Assembly: GCA_944386685.1 (NCBI GenBank)
Contig: CALXCA010000003.1
Location: 37,657-101,656 of the forward strand
Reading direction: 5' to 3'
DNA: 64,000 nt
Source: an uncultured Clostridia bacterium
Lineage (GTDB): Bacteria > Bacillota > Clostridia > TANB77 > CAG-508
Part shown: positions 27,343 through 45,723 of the stretch, piece by piece
How the letters are laid out: each line of letters opens with the position of its first letter
Numbering within the stretch: the first letter of the stretch is position 1
The notes under the pieces: generated by a model
Database searches by the model: none
The model's input: only the letters and a program-made list of their open reading frames with translations
Told to the model about the DNA's origin: nothing
Program-made: the position numbers and the translations under genes

Positions 27343-29160
27343 TTATCTACATGTTATACTCCATGAATATATTTCTACTGAAAAATCTCCATCATCATAC
27401 ATTAATTTTAGCTTTCCTGAACCAAAATTTGTACTTCTTGTTGAAATATTAATCCTGTATGTTGCACTATTTCTATTTACAACTTGTATTCCTCCAACAT
27501 CAACTTGGCTTATTCCTTCTTTAACTAGTCTTAATTTGCTTGTATCAAAATATGATGATAATTTGAAATTTATTGTAGCACTATCACTTCTAAGCTCTTG
27601 ACCAGCATAAACATCGTTACAAACTGTTGTAGTTACATCATCAGCACAGTATATTGTATCACCAATCTCTTCTTCAGCTTCTTCCATACCAGGTGGGCAA
27701 GGAACTAATTCAAAATTAGTCTCAGTATGGCACTCTTCTCTATAAATATCCTCATACCAAGCTTTTACTGAATAAGTGCCACTAGTATTAGAAATTGTTG
27801 GTAAAACAACTACTTTACAAGTTGATTTTATTTTTCCATCTGTATTTTTAGCTGTTATTGTAACTTCTCCTGAACTTATTGAAGTTACTGTACATGTTGT
27901 TTGATTATTTCCACTTGAAGAAACTTTTGCAACTCCTGTATTACTACTTGTCCATATTACATCTTCTGTACATGTTCCATCATCTGGTTTTATATGTGCT
28001 ACAATTGTTGCTGTTTCTCCTGGTTTTATAACAAGTCTATCGGGGTCAACAGATATTGCTGTTATTGTTGTTACTACTACTATTCTACATTCTGCTGTTA
28101 TTCCATTTTCTGTTGTTGCTGTTATTGTTGCATTTCCATTTTTTATTCCTTTTACATATCCTGTTTCATCTACTGTTGCTACACTTGTATCACTACTTAC
28201 CCATGTTACATTTGTTCCTACATTTGCTGTTTCTGGCATAAATGATACTACTTCTAATTGTAATTCTGGTACTTTACTTCTATCTAGTACTGCTGATACT
28301 GCATTTAAGTTCATTCCTGTTGGACTTGTTTGTACTGTTATTGTACTTGTTCCGGCTACTCCGTTTTCTGTTTTTGCTGTTATTGTTACTGTTCCATTTG
28401 ATATTCCTGTTACAAATCCTGCTTCTGTTACTGTTGCTACATTTGTATCACTACTTGTCCATGTTATATTTGTATATACGTTTGCTGTATCTGGTAATAT
28501 TGTTGCTGTTAGTTGTACTGTTCTATTCATTGATGATAAATCTATTACACTACTTGCTGGTTCTACTTTTACTTCTTCTGGTTCTGTTTGTACTGTTACA
28601 TAACATCTGTCTGTTTTGTTCTTGTCTGTTGTTACTGTTACTATTGTATGTCCATTTGCTTTTCCGGTTATTAATCCATCTTCTCCTAGTTCTGCTATAT
28701 TATCATCTGAATTTGACCAGGTTACATTTTCTGATTCTGTTGTATACTGTAGTTTTACACTTTCTCCTACATTTAGTATTAAACTTTCTGGTAATTCTAT
28801 TCCATCTCTGTTTAGTTCTTCTCCCTCATATACCATTCCATTTTCATCTACTGTATACTTATTTCCAGATACTTTAAATTCTACTAGGAATATTCCATGA
28901 TATCCATCATCTATTTCGTAATCCATTACTCCATCTGGGTCTTCTCCTATGTATGAATCCATATAATGTTCTAGATTACCACTTGTTACCTGACCAATAT
29001 CATTATCTGCCACAGATTGTGCAGCTGCCCATTCTACAGTTTCCTTTTCTTCACTTCTATTTTTTTCTGAGTCTGCATTTTCTGCACTATTTATTATTCC
29101 ATTATCTCCTGTTAGAGCTGTAACAGTTATCCCTGCAATTATAAGCATAACAATTACCGT
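27343..29160 (-). pseudogene. Ig-domain prepilin-like surface protein 1, headless (phase OFF)
   Basis: About 600 residues remain. The frame begins inside the prepilin helix (VIVMLIIAGITVTALTGDNG) with no RBS and a stop codon just upstream, because the promoter, RBS and first 18 codons lie inverted at 32483-32535. The body has a pseudopilin-like region, then about four BIG2-type Ig repeats (WTSSDTNVATV..GFVTGISNGTVTITA) and a C-terminal domain with several Cys (EECHTE, YCADDVTTTVCND, SITCR). DNA of the first ~550 bases is almost identical to the intact paralogue ending at 33459, while the C-terminal third differs. It is reversibly silenced rather than dead, in my reading. Confidence 0.85.
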
Positions 29161-29189
29161 AACAATATTACTTTATGACTATTTTTATT

Positions 29190-30824
29190 TTAGCCAACAT
29201 TTTGTATTTTTTTATCTTTTTTACCTTTATTTAAAATATTGAATTTATAATATATAGTTATTTCCTTATTTTCTGAAATTTCAATTTTATTGACTAAAGA
29301 TATAAGTATTGTTCTAGTTATTTCTTTCATATTTATAAAATTTTCAACTAATTCCTTGATATCAACAGATAAATCTTCTTTTTCTTCAGATTTTTTTAAT
29401 TGTTTAATTCTTTCTTCAATTTGTTTTCTGCTATCTATATGTTTTGAATAAATTCTAGAAAAGTCTTCATTTTCAAATAGTCCATTATATTTATCTTCAT
29501 ATAATTTGTCTATTTTTTTATTTATATCTTTAATCTTTTTTTCTAAGATAAGAATTTCATTTTTTAAATTAAATTTATCTTCAATTATCTTTTCTTTTGA
29601 GGCATTGGCAATTTGGGTATATTTTTCCTCATTCAAAAAATCTTTACATCTGCTTTTAATTTGTTCAATAACAAAATTTGTTACTTTTTCTAGATTATTG
29701 CTATGTGGTGTACAAAAATTCAAATGTGTGTTTCTAGCATAAGTATTACATCTTAAATAAAAATTTGTTTTAATATTGTTTTTTTGTGGAACTATACTTA
29801 ATTTCTTTCCACATTCTTTACAATATATTAAACCTTTTAATAACCAATCATAAGTTTTTACTCTTGTTGAAGTTCTGCTTTTTATCATATCTTGTACAAT
29901 ATTAAATGTTTCTTCATCAATTATTGGTGTATGCATACCTTTTACTATTATTCTATCTTCTTTTGGCATTACCATTGTTTTTTTGCTCTTGTAATTAATT
30001 TTTTTAGTGTTTCCATTTGATACCCAACCCAAATAAGTTACATTTTGTAATATTCTTTTTACAGTATTTCTGTTCCATCCAATTCTAGTTTCACTTTTTC
30101 TTGTATGTGTATTTCCTACAATTTCTGATGGAACTAATGCTTTTTCTTTTGTTAGAATTCTACTTATTTCTGTTGGTGTTTTTCCTTTTCTTGCAAACAT
30201 AAAAATTCTTTTTACAATTGGTGCAATGTCTTGGTCAATTATGTAATGATTATAATCTAGTGGATCTTTTTTATATCCATATGTTGGATATATTGTCATA
30301 ACTTTTCCTTCTTTAGCCCTTGTTTTTTTACCGTTTCTTACCTTTCTGGATGTATCACGTAAAAACCATTCATTAAAAAATGATTTAAATTGTACCATTT
30401 CTTCTGATGTTTCAATATGTCCTGTATCTATATCATCTGTTATTGCTATAAATCTTACACCTTTTTCAATGAAAAATTCTTCTAAATAGTAAGATATTTT
30501 ACTAGATAATCTCCCAAATCTTGATAAATCTTTAACTGCTATTAAATTGATTTTCTTATCTTCAATATCTTTTATCATTCTATTAAATGCTGGTCTATCA
30601 AAAGTAGCCCCAGAAACTCCATCATCTGTATAGTCATCATATACTTTTATGTTATTGTCTTTACAAAAGTTTCTTAAAAATATTTTTTGTGTACTTATAC
30701 TTCCACTTTCTTTTTCATCTTCATTTGTTACCATTACTTCGCCATTTCCAAGTTCAATATTTTCATTGGATAATCTTTCATATAATCCTGCTACATATTT
30801 TTCAGGATTTGCTATTGTTATCAT
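29190..30824 (-). CDS. large serine recombinase
   Basis: About 544 residues. N-terminal resolvase domain (YVAGLYERLS with the catalytic Ser, VKDLSRFGR with catalytic Args near 110), recombinase domain (IYPTYGYKKDP near 195), a Cys zinc ribbon (CKECGKKL near 345, then two more Cys), and a long coiled-coil motif near 430-490, the layout of large serine integrases. Its stop is 30 bases from the left crossover site. AGAGAGG five bases before the Met at 30824 decides the start. It is the obvious candidate to flip the segment it lies in. Members of this family usually integrate phages or conjugative elements one way and need a partner protein to reverse; no such partner is recognised, though the nearby 36-residue ORF is a candidate. 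Confidence 0.93.
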   Translation of the reverse strand: MITIANPEKYVAGLYERLSNENIELGNGEVMVTNEDEKESGSISTQKIFLRNFCKDNNIKVYDDYTDDGVSGATFDRPAFNRMIKDIEDKKINLIAVKDLSRFGRLSSKISYYLEEFFIEKGVRFIAITDDIDTGHIETSEEMVQFKSFFNEWFLRDTSRKVRNGKKTRAKEGKVMTIYPTYGYKKDPLDYNHYIIDQDIAPIVKRIFMFARKGKTPTEISRILTKEKALVPSEIVGNTHTRKSETRIGWNRNTVKRILQNVTYLGWVSNGNTKKINYKSKKTMVMPKEDRIIVKGMHTPIIDEETFNIVQDMIKSRTSTRVKTYDWLLKGLIYCKECGKKLSIVPQKNNIKTNFYLRCNTYARNTHLNFCTPHSNNLEKVTNFVIEQIKSRCKDFLNEEKYTQIANASKEKIIEDKFNLKNEILILEKKIKDINKKIDKLYEDKYNGLFENEDFSRIYSKHIDSRKQIEERIKQLKKSEEKEDLSVDIKELVENFINMKEITRTILISLVNKIEISENKEITIYYKFNILNKGKKDKKIQNVG

Positions 30825-30910
30825 TAAAACCTCTCTTTCTAATAACAACAGGTTTCTTCCAATTTTAAATCATTGTAATTTTTACAAATGATTATGTTAG
30901 CTATAACAAA

Positions 30911-30939
30911 ATTATACAGTTTTAGAAAAAATATTGCAA
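30911..30939 (-). promoter_or_regulatory. sigma-A promoter of the recombinase
   Basis: TTGCAA (30934-30939), 17 bases, TATAAT (30911-30916) on the minus strand. The leader to 30824 holds a hairpin (AATCATT with AATGATT) that might modulate translation. Confidence 0.7.
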
Positions 30940-30976
30940 TAATTATTACAAAATTTTGGATTGTTATTTATTCAAG

Positions 30977-31096
30977 TTTTTTATACAATAGGAAATAATA
31001 TGAAACTTTAAGTTTTGCAACTAAAAGTGAAAATAAAATTTATTATTAAAAAATTTTATTTTCAAAAGAAAGTCATACTTTCCTATTGTATAAAAA
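30977..31096. repeat. palindromic repeat U, copy 1
   Basis: 120 bases with ends TTTTATACAATAGGAAA and TTTCCTATTGTATAAAA and an inner AAAATAAAATTT/AAATTTTATTTT pair. Part of it matches 35563-35630 in reverse orientation. It lies between the recombinase promoter and the 36-residue ORF. Confidence 0.7.
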
Positions 31097-31119
31097 TCTA
31101 TAATTGCTATCTTTAAAAC

Positions 31120-31230
31120 TTATTTATTGATTTTTTCAATTAAGTAATTTATAAATGTTTCTTGTAATTTTTCTTGTACTGTTTTTTCGTTTTCATCAAA
31201 GACTTCTTTTATTAAATATTCCTGTTTCAT
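31120..31230 (-). CDS. 36-residue hypothetical protein beside the recombinase
   Basis: Begins MKQEYLIKEVFDENEKTVQE, charged and helical, no membrane segment; ends KINK. AGAAAGG lies about 13 bases upstream of the ATG at 31230. It sits between HEPN and recombinase genes on the same strand inside the invertible segment. Possible roles are recombination directionality factor or regulator, by position only. Other DNA at 31097-31580 shows no further gene. Confidence 0.5.
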   Translation of the reverse strand: MKQEYLIKEVFDENEKTVQEKLQETFINYLIEKINK

Positions 31231-31580
31231 ATAAATCTCAATTCCTTTCTTATAGCTAGCTTGTTTATAAAATAAATTAACCTGCTATTATTTTTATAAA
31301 TAATTTTTTTATATAAAGAAAAAAATACACCTTGTTTTTTAAAGTGTATTTTTAACAGATTTTATCATATGGTAATATTTCTATCTCTTTTGTTTATTCT
31401 ATTTTTACTATTACTATTTTATTTAAAAAATTTTCACCTCCATTTTTGTATTTTTAGCAATTAGCAAAAATAAATTATATACAATTAGTATTATACTTAA
31501 TACTATAAGTTATGTCAATTAAATTTATTAATATATGCAAAAAGAAAAAACATCTCTATATAAAGATGTTTTATATATAA

Positions 31581-31976
31581 TTATTTATTTTTTACATATT
31601 CTTCAACTAATTCTAATAATTCCTCTGCAGTTTGAATTTGTTCAAGAGTATCTTCAGGTTTTGCAATAAATTCATCATCATAATCACTATCTTCTCTAAT
31701 TTTACTAGCTTTTGATATCTTTTTTCCTATAGATTTTGGAAAAATTTCTGTATGTACATAATTTTTATTAAAATAAGCTACTACATCTTTATGTTTTTTA
31801 AAATCAATTGGCTCTAAAGCCAAAATAGACCTAATACTGTGGAATATGGAATAATAAGCTCTATTATTGGAAGATTTATATAAACTTAAATTATATAAGG
31901 CTTTACTTGCTTTTAAATCTTCTTTAGCTTGTTCTAATCTATGGTTTACTAATTCTTTTGAAATTTTTGGACTCAT
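31581..31976 (-). CDS. HEPN-domain protein, HepT-like toxin
   Basis: About 131 residues, all helical, with the HEPN signature NRAYYSIFHS (Arg-x6-His) near residue 40. HEPN toxins are RNases or are held inactive by their MNT partner. Its ATG overlaps the stop of the upstream nucleotidyltransferase gene by four bases (ATGA), with GAAGGAG before it, so the two are translationally coupled. The gene order MNT then HEPN matches known MntA-HepT toxin-antitoxin pairs. Confidence 0.85.
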   Translation of the reverse strand: MSPKISKELVNHRLEQAKEDLKASKALYNLSLYKSSNNRAYYSIFHSIRSILALEPIDFKKHKDVVAYFNKNYVHTEIFPKSIGKKISKASKIREDSDYDDEFIAKPEDTLEQIQTAEELLELVEEYVKNK

Positions 31977-32320
31977 TTTAATATCACTCCTTCTTTTTGT
32001 ACATTCATGTAAAAAGGTAATACTTCTAACCAATAATTAAACTTATCTATATTTTTTATTAAGGGAGATAATGAAATATCAAAATTATTATTCCATTCTA
32101 TTTCATAAGCATAATCCCAAATCTTATTTCTGTATTTAATTATTTCATCATCATTTAAGTCAGTTAATATCATAATATCAATATCAGAATTTTTATTATA
32201 ATCTCCTCTTGCATAAGAACCATAAAGTATAATTTTTTTTAATCTTTTGCCTAAGATTTTCTTTACCCCATTTATAAATTCATCAATTATATTATTTACT
32301 TTAGATGGTATATTTTTCAT
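31973..32320 (-). CDS. MNT-type nucleotidyltransferase, MntA-like antitoxin
   Basis: About 115 residues with the minimal nucleotidyltransferase motif GSYARGDYNKNSDIDIMIL (GS...DxD) near residue 40. In characterised pairs MntA adds AMP groups to the HEPN toxin and so neutralises it. GGAAAG precedes the Met at 32320; the longer frame has no RBS. A TATAAT at 32364-32369 (minus strand) may be its -10 box, back to back with the pilin 1 promoter. Being inside the invertible segment, the pair may also stabilise it. Confidence 0.87.
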   Translation of the reverse strand: MKNIPSKVNNIIDEFINGVKKILGKRLKKIILYGSYARGDYNKNSDIDIMILTDLNDDEIIKYRNKIWDYAYEIEWNNNFDISLSPLIKNIDKFNYWLEVLPFYMNVQKEGVILK

Positions 32321-32410
32321 ATCGGAACACTTTCCTTTCATCTTTAAATAAAACTTTTTATTTATTATAACATATTATTTATTCTTTATCATTGATTTTT
32401 TTAAAATAAT

Positions 32411-32439
32411 TTGATTTTTTGTCAAAAATTTGGTACAAT
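32411..32439 (+). promoter_or_regulatory. invertible sigma-A promoter of pilin 1
   Basis: TTGATT (32411-32416), 17 bases, TACAAT (32434-32439). In the present orientation it points right, away from the pilin 1 body; inversion of 29160-32534 would aim it into pilin 1 and the downstream thioredoxin-like genes. The leader ACAAAGGAGGATG matches that of the intact paralogue. Confidence 0.75.
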
Positions 32440-32482
32440 TTAAGTATATAATTAAATTTTTTTACAAAGGAGGATGATGTTT

Positions 32483-32608
32483 ATGAAGCTTTTTAAGAAA
32501 AACAATGGACTAACTTTAGTTGCACTAATTATCACAATTTTGTTCTCTTATGACGAAAACTTAAAATGTAGTAATAACAATGGTTTCCTCCTATCAACAA
32601 TTTATTAA
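32483..32608 (+). pseudogene. displaced 5' end of pilin 1 (prepilin head)
   Basis: Behind a perfect AAAGGAGG site the frame reads MKLFKKNNGLTLVALIIT, the prepilin leader and first part of its hydrophobic helix, then at the crossover (32534-32535) changes into unrelated ILFSYDENLK... and stops at 32608. The intact paralogue continues LIITVIVMLIIAGITV. In this orientation only a 41-residue peptide could be made. Confidence 0.85.
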
Positions 32609-32638
32609 AAATAAAATTTTAACATATTTAGAAGATGA

Positions 32639-32676
32639 GTTAGGCTGTAAAACTTTATAAAGTTTTACAGCCTAAC
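32639..32676. terminator. 17-bp hairpin after thioredoxin-like gene 3
   Basis: GTTAGGCTGTAAAACTT pairs with AAGTTTTACAGCCTAAC around a four-base loop. It follows the minus-strand gene at 32695 and faces the displaced pilin 1 promoter, so it may also stop antisense transcription in the OFF state. U-tracts on both sides are weak. Confidence 0.6.
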
Positions 32677-32694: not shown

Positions 32695-33390
32695 TTATTT
32701 CTTTAATAACTCATAATAATGGTCATATAATTCTTGTTTTTGTTCATCTGTTAATGGAGAATTTTTAGCTTGTCCTTCATTATAATTTATAGAAGTTCCT
32801 ATTTCTTTTAATGTTGCTTCTCCAGAGTTGGTAATTGCTAATAATGGAATGCTCCAGCTTTCATTTCCTTCTTCATTTAAAGTTAAAAGTTCTTGCTCAG
32901 CTAATTTATTTATTATTTCATTTCTTTTTTCTTCTTCAATAGCATCTTCATTTGCGGTTATGTCATAATAATATAATTTATCTATTCCAACATCTTTTAA
33001 AACTTTTAATAATGTTTCTATAGATGCTCTACAATATGTGCATGTTGGAGCACTTACATATATATATGAATTTTCATTACTATTCATTACATCATATAAT
33101 TCTTCTAATCCAACATATACTATTGGATTATTTTCATCTATATTTACTGTATTATATGTTTCTCCATTACTTTCATCTTTAGTTCCATTTAGTTTTTCAA
33201 ATTCTTGTTTAAATCTTTTAGAATCTTCTGTTGCTGAATAATTTATTGTGTTTTCATTTGTTGTATTTTCATTTTGTGGTTTATTTTTTTCTTGAGTCAA
33301 ATTCCATATTATTCCACTTTGTATTGCAATTAGTATTATTAATACAATTAGTATAATTGCCATTATAAACATATATTTTTTATTTTTCAT
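32695..33390 (-). CDS. membrane-anchored thioredoxin-fold protein (paralogue 3)
   Basis: 231 residues with the same plan as the genes at 25537 and 26556: N-terminal membrane helix (5-28), polar linker, thioredoxin-like domain with SAPTCTYCRASIETLL near residue 125, YYYDI, and WSIPLLAITNSG. The CTYC pair suggests redox activity outside the membrane. It is 68 bases downstream of the intact Ig-domain pilin 2, and its RBS region (AGGAGAAATTCAA) is identical to that of paralogue 2. The repeated pilin-thioredoxin pairing argues for a shared task. Confidence 0.82.
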   Translation of the reverse strand: MKNKKYMFIMAIILIVLIILIAIQSGIIWNLTQEKNKPQNENTTNENTINYSATEDSKRFKQEFEKLNGTKDESNGETYNTVNIDENNPIVYVGLEELYDVMNSNENSYIYVSAPTCTYCRASIETLLKVLKDVGIDKLYYYDITANEDAIEEEKRNEIINKLAEQELLTLNEEGNESWSIPLLAITNSGEATLKEIGTSINYNEGQAKNSPLTDEQKQELYDHYYELLKK

Positions 33391-33458: not shown

Positions 33459-35480
33459 TTATTTACAAGATATTGTCCATCTATATACTTCTTGTGATTC
33501 TCCTTCACTTTCATACATTAATATTAATGCTCCTGTACTAAAACTTGTACTATCTGTTGAAATATTTATTCTATATGTTGCATTATTTCTGTCAGATACT
33601 GATATATTTCCTACATTTACACTTCCTATTCCACTCTTTACAAGTCTTAATTTGTTTACATCTACATATGATGATAGTTTAAAACTTATTGTATTACTAT
33701 CACTTACAAGTCTTTGAGCATATTTTGTATCACATTTTCTTTCTGTATCACATACTTCAATAGTTACATATTCACAATCAGAGTTACAAACAGTTCCACA
33801 ATATTCACGTGGTTCTTCTTTTACACAATAGAAAACATCATCATACATTTGAGTTTTCTCATTCCATTCTTTTCTTACATTTTGTTGAACACATCCCATA
33901 ATTGTTGTACAATCATCTCTACATGTAGAATTATCATTAGTACATTCTTTAACCTTTTCATTACGACAGTTTGTTGTTACATTATAACAATCTTGATAAG
34001 AATATCTTTCATAATATGCTTTTACAGAATATTCTTTATTTGTATTTGACATTACAGGTATTACTATTAATGTTGCTGTGTCTTTAATTTTTCCATTTGG
34101 ATTTTTTGCTGTTATTGTTACTACTCCTGCTTTTAAAGATTGTATGTTACATGTTACATTGTTAGCTCCACTTGTTGTTAGTTTTACTACACTTGTATCA
34201 CTAGTTGTCCAAGTTACATCTTCAGTACATGTTCCATCATCTGGTTTTATATATGCAGTTAAATTAATATTATCACCATCATTTAATACTTCTCTATTAG
34301 AACTTAATCTAATATCTGTTATTGTTGTTACTACAACTATTCTACATGTTGCTGTTTTTCCATTTTCTGTGGTTGCTGTTATTGTTGCATTTCCATTTTT
34401 TATTCCTCTTACAAATCCTGTTTCATCTACTGTTGCTACACTTGTATCACTACTTACCCATGTTACATTTGTTCCTACATTTGCTGTTTCTGGCATATAT
34501 GATACTACTTCTAATTGTAATTCTGGTACATGACTTCTATCTAATACTGCTGATACTGCATTTAAGTTTAATCCTGTTGGACTTGTTTGTACTGTTATTG
34601 TACTTGTTCCTGCTACTCCATTTTCTGCTTTAGCTGTTATTGTTACTGTTCCATTTGATATTCCTGTTACAAATCCTGTTTCATTTACTGTTGCTACATT
34701 TGTATCACTACTTGTCCATGTTATATTTGTATATACATTTGCTGTTTCTGGTAATATCTTTGCTGTTAATTGTACTGTTCTGTTCATTGAAGATAAATCT
34801 ATTACACTACTTGCTGGTTCTACTATTACTTCTTCTGGCTCTGTTTGTACTGTTACATAACATCTATCTGTTTTGTTTTTGTCTGTTGTTACAGTTACTA
34901 TCGTATGTCCATTTGCTTTTCCTGTTATTAATCCATCTTCTCCTAATTCTGCTATATTATCATCTGAATTTGACCAGGTTACATTTTCTGATTCTGTTGT
35001 ATACTGTAGTTTTACACTTTCTCCTACATTTAGTATTAAACTTTCTGGTAATTCTATTCCATCTCTGTTTAGTTCTTCTCCCTCATATACCATTCCATTT
35101 TCATCTACTGTATACTTATTTCCAGATACTTTAAATTCTACTAGGAATATTCCATGATATCCATCATCTATTTCGTAATCCATTACTCCATCTGGGTCTT
35201 CTCCTATGTATGAATCCATATAATGTTCTAGATTACCACTTGTTACCTGACCAATATCATTATCTGCCACAGATTGTGCAGCTGCCCATTCTACAGTTTC
35301 CTTTTCTTCACTTCTATTTTTTTCTGAATCTGCATTTTCTGCACTATTTATTATTCCATTATCTCCTGTTAGAGCTGTAACAGTTATTCCTGCAATTATA
35401 AGCATAACAATTACCGTGATAATTAGTGCAACTAAAGTTAATCCATTGTTTTTCTTAAGCTTCTTTTTTAATCTTTTCAT
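33459..35480 (-). CDS. Ig-domain prepilin-like surface protein 2 (intact)
   Basis: 673 residues. Basic leader (MKRLKKKLKKNNG), then a prepilin-type hydrophobic helix LTLVALIITVIVMLIIAGIT; four BIG2-type Ig repeats (about 125-470); then a Cys-rich C-terminal region (CYNVTTNCRN, CTNDNSTCRDDC, CGTVCNSDC, CDTERKCD) and a final beta-rich domain ending RWTISCK. Class III-like signal G-L/TLVAL lacks the usual Glu at position 5 and Phe at position 1, so processing by a prepilin peptidase is uncertain; it may simply be membrane anchored. It carries an intact copy of the recombinase target (near 35410-35425). N-terminal DNA is near identical to pilin 1; the C-terminal domain is not. Confidence 0.87.
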   Translation of the reverse strand: MKRLKKKLKKNNGLTLVALIITVIVMLIIAGITVTALTGDNGIINSAENADSEKNRSEEKETVEWAAAQSVADNDIGQVTSGNLEHYMDSYIGEDPDGVMDYEIDDGYHGIFLVEFKVSGNKYTVDENGMVYEGEELNRDGIELPESLILNVGESVKLQYTTESENVTWSNSDDNIAELGEDGLITGKANGHTIVTVTTDKNKTDRCYVTVQTEPEEVIVEPASSVIDLSSMNRTVQLTAKILPETANVYTNITWTSSDTNVATVNETGFVTGISNGTVTITAKAENGVAGTSTITVQTSPTGLNLNAVSAVLDRSHVPELQLEVVSYMPETANVGTNVTWVSSDTSVATVDETGFVRGIKNGNATITATTENGKTATCRIVVVTTITDIRLSSNREVLNDGDNINLTAYIKPDDGTCTEDVTWTTSDTSVVKLTTSGANNVTCNIQSLKAGVVTITAKNPNGKIKDTATLIVIPVMSNTNKEYSVKAYYERYSYQDCYNVTTNCRNEKVKECTNDNSTCRDDCTTIMGCVQQNVRKEWNEKTQMYDDVFYCVKEEPREYCGTVCNSDCEYVTIEVCDTERKCDTKYAQRLVSDSNTISFKLSSYVDVNKLRLVKSGIGSVNVGNISVSDRNNATYRINISTDSTSFSTGALILMYESEGESQEVYRWTISCK

Positions 35481-35552: not shown

Positions 35553-35562
35553 CTTTTATATT

Positions 35563-35630
35563 TAAAATTTTATTTTCACTTTGAGCCTAAGTAACTTAGA
35601 GTTTCATATTGTTTCCTATACACTAAAAAA
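35563..35630. repeat. palindromic repeat U, copy 2 (partial)
   Basis: AAATTTTATTTTCACTTT ... GTTTCATATTGTTTCCTATA matches the reverse complement of 30984-31046, with changes in the middle. Confidence 0.6.
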
Positions 35631-45042: not shown

Positions 45043-45723
45043 TCATTTCTTTATTTCAAATTTATATCCAATTCCTCTTACTGTTTCTATGTATTTTCCT
45101 TTTTTACCTAATTTATGTCTGATTTTTTTTATATGACTATCTATAGTTCTAGAATCTCCATAATAGTCATAATTCCATACATTGTTTAAAATTTTATCTC
45201 TTGATAGTGCAATATTTTCATTATCTAATAAGTATTTTAATAATTCATATTCTCTTAAACTTAAATCTATTGGTTTTCCATCAACTTTTACAGTGCGTCC
45301 CTCTTGGTCGATTACAATGCCATCATAATCTCTTACTTTTTTAGTATCTCCATATACTCTTTTAAGTATGGCTTCTACTCTTGCAACTAAAATTTTTGGA
45401 CTAAATGGCTTAGATATATATTCATCAACTCCAAGTTCAAATCCAAATAATTCATCTTGTTCTTCTCCCCTTGCAGTTAACATTATAACTGGTAGATTTG
45501 ACTCTTGTCTTATTTTTCTTAGAACAGACCAGCCGTCAAGTTTTGGCATCATTACATCTAATAAAATTAGTTTTATTTTATTTCTATTTTCTTCAAATAC
45601 TTCTATTGCTTTTTCTCCATCTTCTGCTTCTAATATTTGATACCCTTTTTGCGATAAAAAATCTTTTAGTAATTTTCTCATTCTAGATTCATCATCTACT
45701 ACTAAAATATATACTCCATCCAT
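45043..45723 (-). CDS. OmpR-family response regulator
   Basis: 226 residues: receiver domain with acidic pocket (VVDDES), phospho-acceptor Asp in LLDVMMPKLDGW near 55, Thr in MLTARGEE and Lys in SKPFSP; then a winged-helix DNA-binding domain (LSLREYELLKYLL, DSRTIDSHIKKIRHKLG, TVRGIGYKF). Partner of the kinase directly downstream. Targets not evident in the window. Confidence 0.95.
   Translation of the reverse strand: MDGVYILVVDDESRMRKLLKDFLSQKGYQILEAEDGEKAIEVFEENRNKIKLILLDVMMPKLDGWSVLRKIRQESNLPVIMLTARGEEQDELFGFELGVDEYISKPFSPKILVARVEAILKRVYGDTKKVRDYDGIVIDQEGRTVKVDGKPIDLSLREYELLKYLLDNENIALSRDKILNNVWNYDYYGDSRTIDSHIKKIRHKLGKKGKYIETVRGIGYKFEIKK

What the first reader, a model, noticed from the sequence alone, without database searches (positions are those of the whole stretch)
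29160..32534. A 3.4-kb serine-recombinase inverton decapitates an Ig-domain pilin gene: a phase-variation switch in the OFF state
Seen: the pilin 1 body (27343-29160, minus) lacks promoter, RBS and first codons; those lie 3.4 kb away at 32411-32535 pointing the other way, at the far end of a segment carrying a serine recombinase. Inverting the segment between GT (29159-29160) and AC (32534-32535) recreates CAATTACCGTGATAATTAG, identical to the intact paralogue, and gives a full protein start MKLFKKNNGLTLVALIIT joined to VIVMLIIAGI. Known: invertible promoters controlling surface structures are common in gut bacteria, usually with small tyrosine or Hin-type enzymes. Inferred: here a large serine recombinase moves promoter, RBS and coding start together, making the switch intragenic.
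Basis: partly seen in the sequence, partly recalled or inferred. Interest (0 to 1): 0.93.

Follow-up and report, generated by a model that had tools for sequence, protein, structure and literature searches.

The report
Integrase that flips a pilin's head
In this genome, whose relatives are recorded as uncultured Clostridia, a pilin-like gene is cut in two, its promoter-like stretch and first codons lying 3.4 kb away and facing backwards beside a serine recombinase gene; flipping that stretch, which the recombinase is predicted to do, would rebuild a joined gene whose close match exists in a public protein collection, so this is likely an on/off switch made from a mobile element's integrase.

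Summary
The pilin-1 body (27343-29160, minus) has no head; a promoter-like site, RBS and 18 codons lie on the plus strand at 32411-32535, and the two junctions share exactly AC. Inverting 29159-32535 gives an unbroken 622-aa pilin and an attP-like site beside the recombinase stop codon. This is serine-integrase anatomy: of 25 recombinase-adjacent sites in the window and relatives, 25 carry AC and 21 run into pilin-like bodies. Elsewhere the same integrase family splits pilin genes in direct orientation; of 8 loci whose orientation could be judged, 3 are inverted, all orthologous. A joined protein with this exact head exists (P0012, 469 of the first 480 residues identical), beside decapitated ones. 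Body and recombinase evolved under purifying selection. Against: all 3 orthologous genomes are OFF, one has a nonsense codon in the recombinase, one is a decayed relic, and the one attP-pattern hit in 210 genus genomes is not beside a recombinase. P0012's contig could not be read. Head inversion by the integrase is well supported; reversibility, hence true phase variation, is inferred. New variant of a known kind.

The parts
27343..29160 (-). Pilin-1 body (Big_2 Ig-like domains) without start codons, RBS or promoter; the joined reading frame resumes at the AC core
   Evidence: decapitated homologues P0001, P0003, P0005, P0010
29159..29160 (.). Crossover dinucleotide GT (AC on the minus strand), body-side hybrid site (attP half P + attB half)
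   Evidence: AC at the same place in 25 of 25 recombinase-adjacent sites
29161..29185 (-). P half of attP (AATAGTCATAA motif), directly after the recombinase stop codon
   Evidence: symmetry with P' 12 of 20 against 6.2 expected, P 0.003 for 20 bases, 0.03 for 25, 0.11 for 30
29190..30824 (-). Large serine recombinase, 544 aa from the ATG with RBS-like GAGAGG (552 aa from TTG 30848)
   Evidence: Resolvase, Recombinase and Zn_ribbon_recom over cut-off; sequence matches to TnpX, SPbeta YokA, TP901-1 and A118 integrases
31123..31230 (-). 36-aa ORF upstream of the recombinase; candidate directionality factor (guess)
   Evidence: 67-94% identical ORF in 22 of 32 relatives' loci (L025-L047, L061-L069); no family match
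31490..31518 (-). 12-of-12 sigma-70-like promoter match reading towards the 36-aa ORF and the recombinase
   Evidence: conserved by eye in L025
31581..31979 (-). HEPN-domain gene (no match in L025)
31973..32341 (-). MNT-type nucleotidyltransferase gene next to HEPN (no match in L025)
32411..32439 (+). Promoter-like match (TTGATT-17-TACAAT, TG before -10) of the pilin head
32483..32535 (+). Pilin-1 head: ATG and 18 codons MKLFKKNNGLTLVALIIT, RBS just upstream; in this orientation it runs on into P' as a 41-aa ORF ending at 32608
32534..32535 (.). Crossover dinucleotide AC, head-side hybrid site
32536..32561 (+). P' half of attP (AATTTTGTTCTCTTATGACGAAAA)
   Evidence: same motif, up to 2 mismatches, in 84 of 210 genus genomes; backward-read control pattern in none listed
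32562..32645 (+). Remnant of a mobile element's left end
   Evidence: resemblance by eye to L034, L035, L040, L049 beyond P'
33459..35480 (-). Intact paralogue pilin-2 with the same attB sequence

Best explanation
The segment 29159-32535 separates a pilin-like gene from its promoter-like site, RBS and first 18 codons, and is likely an invertible switch, predicted to be thrown by the large serine recombinase it encodes, read here in the OFF state. Proposed mechanism: in the ON orientation an attP would lie between the thioredoxin-like gene at 32695-33390 and the recombinase, and an attB inside the pilin gene at the Thr codon of ...TLVALIIT/VIVMLIIAG, facing opposite ways. Recombination at the AC core would invert the 3.4 kb between them (a C. 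difficile serine recombinase does this unaided), take promoter, RBS and start codons away from the body and leave hybrid sites; going back would need a directionality factor, perhaps the 36-aa ORF beside the recombinase, or leaky reverse activity. Shown: both junctions, the AC core, the family's pilin target, the existence of joined and decapitated genes. Inferred: that this enzyme made the inversion, that it can be reversed, and that it controls piliation. Likely origin: the integrase of a mobilizable element that normally inserts into pilin genes.
For: Exact two-base junctions and restored 622-aa frame. AC at 25 of 25 recombinase-adjacent P sites, 21 of 25 with pilin-like bodies by eye (33 loci scanned, 8 without the exact motif). 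P' fused in frame to a pilin N-terminus at 25 of 31 sites, this locus included (30 loci returned out of the matches in 84 of 210 genomes). Head joined to body in P0012: first 27 residues identical to the predicted join, 469 of the first 480 identical; body identical to decapitated P0001 over about 470 residues; among 37 hits to its N-terminus it alone matches the head end to end at 100%. Selection between window and L025: body 53 amino-acid changes against a neutral mean of 108 (least of 2,000 trials 92) and 0 stops against 6.9; recombinase 52 against 135, one stop codon left out; neighbour TrxB-like gene 23 against 48. Recombinase and neighbour ThrS have similar dS (0.54; 0.45), so it has probably been resident since the split. 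In C. difficile the serine recombinase CD1231 alone inverts DNA between opposed attP and attB in E. coli and needs CD1234 for the reverse (PMC5025042, passages).
Against: All 3 orthologous genomes are OFF: window, L025, and L047, a decayed relic with the head's 5' end still inverted. L025's recombinase has a stop at codon 275, though 544-aa proteins 90-91% identical to ours exist elsewhere (P0126-P0136; species not known). The attP pattern at up to 3 mismatches gave 1 hit in 210 genus genomes, on a short contig without a recombinase (G170), and none in viral contigs. P0012 could come from a strain that never had the segment; its contig is out of reach. Homogenisation with pilin-2 over the first 230 to 360 codons could keep part of the body open; from codon 230 on, zero stops has P 0.036 in the neutral trial. 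attP symmetry is modest and fades with length.
Confidence: 0.66

Rival explanations
1. One-way lock: the integrase inverted the segment once in an ancestor and the locus has been a slowly decaying OFF relic since.
For: 3 of 3 orthologous genomes OFF, stop codon in L025's recombinase, L047 decayed; no attP beside a recombinase in 210 genomes; serine integrases are directional (PMC3783163, start of abstract in the listing).
Against: Joined gene P0012 with the same head; body open and constrained in window and L025, recombinase constrained; of the three, the body decayed only in L047, where the recombinase decayed too.
Confidence: 0.22
2. Ordinary mobilizable element inserted in the pilin gene in direct orientation, then lost its cargo, and a second unrelated inversion turned the head end round.
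For: Direct-orientation cases in this family: L061, L064, L034 with both ends, L040 and L035 with one end and the recombinase; about 100 bp resembling the element's left end lie outside P'.
Against: Needs extra events, while one attP x attB inversion explains both junctions; the same arrangement stands at the orthologous locus of three genomes.
Confidence: 0.2
3. Silent pilin cassette: the headless body is a donor for gene conversion into pilin-2, as pilS feeds pilE in Neisseria (recalled).
For: Window pilin-1 and pilin-2 DNA is 92-100% alike in 30-codon steps over the first 360 codons; 8 of the 19 proteins read have pilin-2's head on a pilin-1-type tail (P0002, P0004, P0006-P0009, P0011, P0013), and the tails hold a variable Cys-rich loop.
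Against: Does not need a recombinase, attP halves or a complete displaced head with its own promoter-like site; may operate beside the switch.
Confidence: 0.2

Closest known systems
skin element of sigK in Clostridioides difficile (CD1231 recombinase, CD1234 directionality factor; PMC5025042, passages)
   Same: A large serine recombinase splits a host gene inside its coding sequence; the enzyme alone inverts DNA between opposed attP and attB in E. coli
   Different: There the element is excised during sporulation; here a 3.4-kb segment holding the gene's own head is inverted and the target is a pilin-like gene
Moraxella Piv pilin inversion (details recalled; mentioned in PMC11868660, passages, and in reference titles of PMC11208160)
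   Same: Pilin switching by DNA inversion
   Different: As recalled, Piv is an IS110-type enzyme, the fixed head stays outside and alternative tails are swapped; here a serine integrase would move the head
Invertible promoters of gut bacteria (PhaseFinder invertons; PMC11892184, passages)
   Same: A promoter turned towards or away from a surface gene
   Different: Those are located by inverted repeats, and the enzyme links in the passages read are mainly to tyrosine-type recombinases; here the junctions share only 2 bases and coding codons move too
Mobilizable elements with this integrase in relatives (L061, L064, L034)
   Same: Same integrase family, same att half-sites; Mob_Pre relaxase in L061
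   Different: Those have their ends in direct orientation; here only recombinase and 36-aa ORF remain of the element and the head is inverted

Membership tests
Large serine recombinase | Resolvase + Recombinase + zinc ribbon domains in a protein of over 450 aa | tested here: met
Large serine recombinase | Two-base crossover core at a fixed place | tested here: met
   AC in 25 of 25 recombinase-adjacent P sites
Large serine recombinase | Symmetrical attP arms | tested here: inconclusive
   P 0.003, 0.03 and 0.11 for 20, 25 and 30 bases
Large serine recombinase | Recombination activity on these sites | not testable with these tools
   needs an assay
Inverted-repeat inverton | Segment bounded by inverted repeats | tested here: not met
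   only AC and chance-level similarity in register
Phase-variable locus | Both orientations found | tested here: inconclusive
   joined protein P0012 found, its DNA unread; 3 of 3 orthologous genomes OFF
Phase-variable locus | Reversible within one strain | not testable with these tools
   no reads
Integrated mobilizable element | Gene halves flank the element in the same orientation | tested here: not met
   head opposite to body here and in L025; same orientation in L061 and L064
Integrated mobilizable element | Relaxase or other transfer genes between the ends | tested here: not met
   ORFs between the junctions: recombinase, 36-aa ORF, HEPN, MNT; no transfer family matched

The most novel reading that the evidence does not exclude
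A mobilizable element's integrase has been domesticated as a latched surface switch: the enzyme alone decapitates the pilin (attP x attB, OFF), a separate factor, perhaps the 36-aa ORF, re-heads it (ON), so switching is directional rather than a coin flip; the kind escapes inverted-repeat inverton searches, and across the genus the same integrase family turns pilin genes on and off by leaving and entering them.
Probability: 0.33. Interest if true: 0.86.

Novelty: new variant of a known kind. Interest (0 to 1): 0.71.

Why it matters
The inverton searches I read about (PMC11892184, passages) start from inverted repeats; a switch run by a serine integrase has none, so such switches may be common and uncounted. 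It would also show a step from parasite to regulator: an integrase family whose half-sites lie in pilin genes across a genus, at one locus turned into a resident switch of a surface protein, with built-in direction.

Tried and rejected
Intact attP by pattern in 210 genus genomes: one hit (G170, 2 mismatches), an element left end on a 5,977-base contig without a recombinase match, not taken as an ON state. Head and attP patterns in viral contigs: none. Reading P0012's contig: no tool gave it; the recombinase search listed no 84,862-base contig among the best 120 of 161, but it shows one contig length per protein, so this tells nothing. Orientation survey of 20 further P' regions: many contigs end within a few kb; I scanned 13 of the 20 for P sites and recombinase motifs and found no convincing second end; in five stretches of 12-19.5 kb (L131, L136, L140, L141, L144) no recombinase motif turned up, so many of the 84 genomes may hold scars rather than whole elements. 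36-aa ORF: no family match. Distant relatives L037-L039 and L042 (66-68%) are arranged otherwise and were not resolved. Papers: nine searches listed no serine-integrase inverton of a pilin that I recognised; two papers on intragenic and gene-altering inversions are not held, so absence from print is not claimed.
Full report
Observation. The pilin-1 body on the minus strand (27343-29160) begins in mid-gene; its missing promoter-like site, RBS and 18 codons stand on the plus strand at 32411-32535. Left and right junctions share exactly the dinucleotide AC. Inverting 29159-32535 restores a 622-aa frame and a second copy of the paralogue's 19-base sequence (one search was one base off). Besides AC the junctions share little, so the usual inverted repeats are absent.

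Enzyme. The gene between encodes a large serine recombinase with the three expected Pfam domains, matching TnpX, SPbeta YokA and the TP901-1 and A118 integrases among solved structures. After inversion the two outer halves would form P-AC-P', an imperfect palindrome (12 of 20 symmetric positions against 6.2 expected; not significant over 30) starting just after the recombinase stop codon: the anatomy of an attP. The site rebuilt in the pilin gene would be attB.

Family. Relatives of the enzyme occur in 14 of 97 genus genomes at E below 1e-100, own genome included, and at 24 loci of public genomes, one of them only 27% identical. I scanned 33 loci (window, L025-L047, L061-L069): 25 have the exact P motif after the recombinase, 25 of 25 with AC at the crossover; 21 run into a pilin-like hydrophobic segment by eye, one of them decayed (L047), and 4 do not (L027, L034, L041, L045); 8 loci lack the exact motif (cut contigs, distant relatives, L035); one further motif match in the window at 45162 is unrelated and was dropped. 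P' occurs, with up to 2 mismatches, in 84 of 210 genus genomes and the backward-read control in none listed; of 31 P' sites in the 30 loci returned, this one included, 25 are fused in frame to a prepilin-like N-terminus. Orientation could be judged at 8 loci: direct in L061, L064, L034 (a non-pilin target), L040 and L035 (recombinase and P' on one strand, far end not seen); inverted in window, L025 and, from a remnant, L047. A recombinase 39-40% identical (L071) also stands in a split pilin, direct. L061's element carries a Mob_Pre relaxase and a YhcG-type nuclease. So the enzyme probably comes from mobilizable elements that insert in pilin genes. But five P' stretches of 12-19.5 kb showed no recombinase motif, so many left ends may be scars.

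The inverted clade. The three inverted loci lie between thrS and smc: window, L025 (probably the same genome as G152; ThrS 96%, SMC 98% identical) and L047 (probably G051), where recombinase, body and head survive as fragments, the head's 5' end still inverted. L025 shows no HEPN or MNT match; its recombinase has a stop at codon 275, but 544-aa proteins 90-91% identical to ours exist in other samples.

Joined state. Among proteins with a pilin-1-type tail (479 hits, 120 listed, 19 read), P0001, P0003, P0005 and P0010 are decapitated at the same point (24, 8, 1 and 1 member sequences), while P0012 (633 aa, 11 members) begins with this locus's head and continues into the body. Its first 27 residues equal the predicted join, 469 of the first 480 are identical, and its body equals P0001 over about 470 residues, differing mainly in a Cys-rich loop. 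A search with its N-terminus (37 hits) found no other protein matching the head end to end at 100%. P0012 shows that head and body belong together; its contig could not be read, so whether it is a flipped segment or a strain without it is open.

Selection. Between window and L025 the body shows 53 amino-acid changes against a neutral mean of 108 and no stop against 6.9; from codon 230 on, which is less homogenised with pilin-2, 23 against 47 and no stop against 3.1 (P 0.036); the recombinase 52 against 135 with one stop codon left out; controls pilin-2 21 against 51 and the TrxB-like gene 23 against 48. A headless gene out of use since the split should look worse, so the body was probably expressed for much of that time.

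Precedent and direction. The serine recombinase of the C. difficile skin element, acting alone in E. coli, inverts DNA between opposed attP and attB and needs a second protein for the reverse (PMC5025042, passages). Serine integrases in general do not recombine attL and attR unaided (PMC3783163), though phiC31 integrase can do some reversal (PMC11784100; both seen as starts of abstracts in the listing). OFF is therefore the expected resting state, which fits 3 of 3 genomes OFF but equally fits a lock. The 36-aa ORF before the recombinase, found at 67-94% identity in 22 of 32 relatives' loci, is a candidate factor, untested. The genome has two strong T2SSE-family ATPase matches on C31, PilB- and PilT-like in my reading, so type IV pili are plausible.

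Verdict. Head inversion by a serine integrase: well supported. Reversible phase variation: likely, not shown.

Noticed in passing
P0002, P0004, P0006-P0009, P0011, P0013: Proteins with pilin-2's head on a pilin-1-type tail; P0006 is 99.7% identical to the decapitated bodies P0005 and P0010: deletion or conversion between the paralogues in other strains.
   Followed up: partly
pilin-1 C-terminal third, window about 27640-27800: Variable Cys-rich loop between otherwise near-identical proteins (P0001 and P0012), suggesting antigenic variation.
   Followed up: partly
genus-wide, loci L099-L128: Element left ends in 84 of 210 genomes, 25 of 31 looked at fused to pilin N-termini, several per genome in some.
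   Followed up: partly
L140 578 and 3497: A head fused to P' and, 2.9 kb on, an intact pilin with the same head: a duplicated head after element loss or replacement.
   Followed up: no
31581-32341: HEPN-MNT toxin-antitoxin-like pair inside the segment, without a match in L025: perhaps recent cargo.
   Followed up: partly
30980-31095 and upstream of pilin-2 near 35560-35630: Similar short stretch in both places by eye, with self-complementary arms at the first: perhaps a miniature mobile repeat.
   Followed up: no
32545-32600 minus strand: RBS-like AGGAGG followed by a 10-codon TTG-started ORF ending in P', present by eye in the elements too.
   Followed up: no
G000 contigs C5, C21, C24: Five further serine recombinases at 27-35% identity, in neighbouring pairs on C5 and C21.
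   Followed up: no
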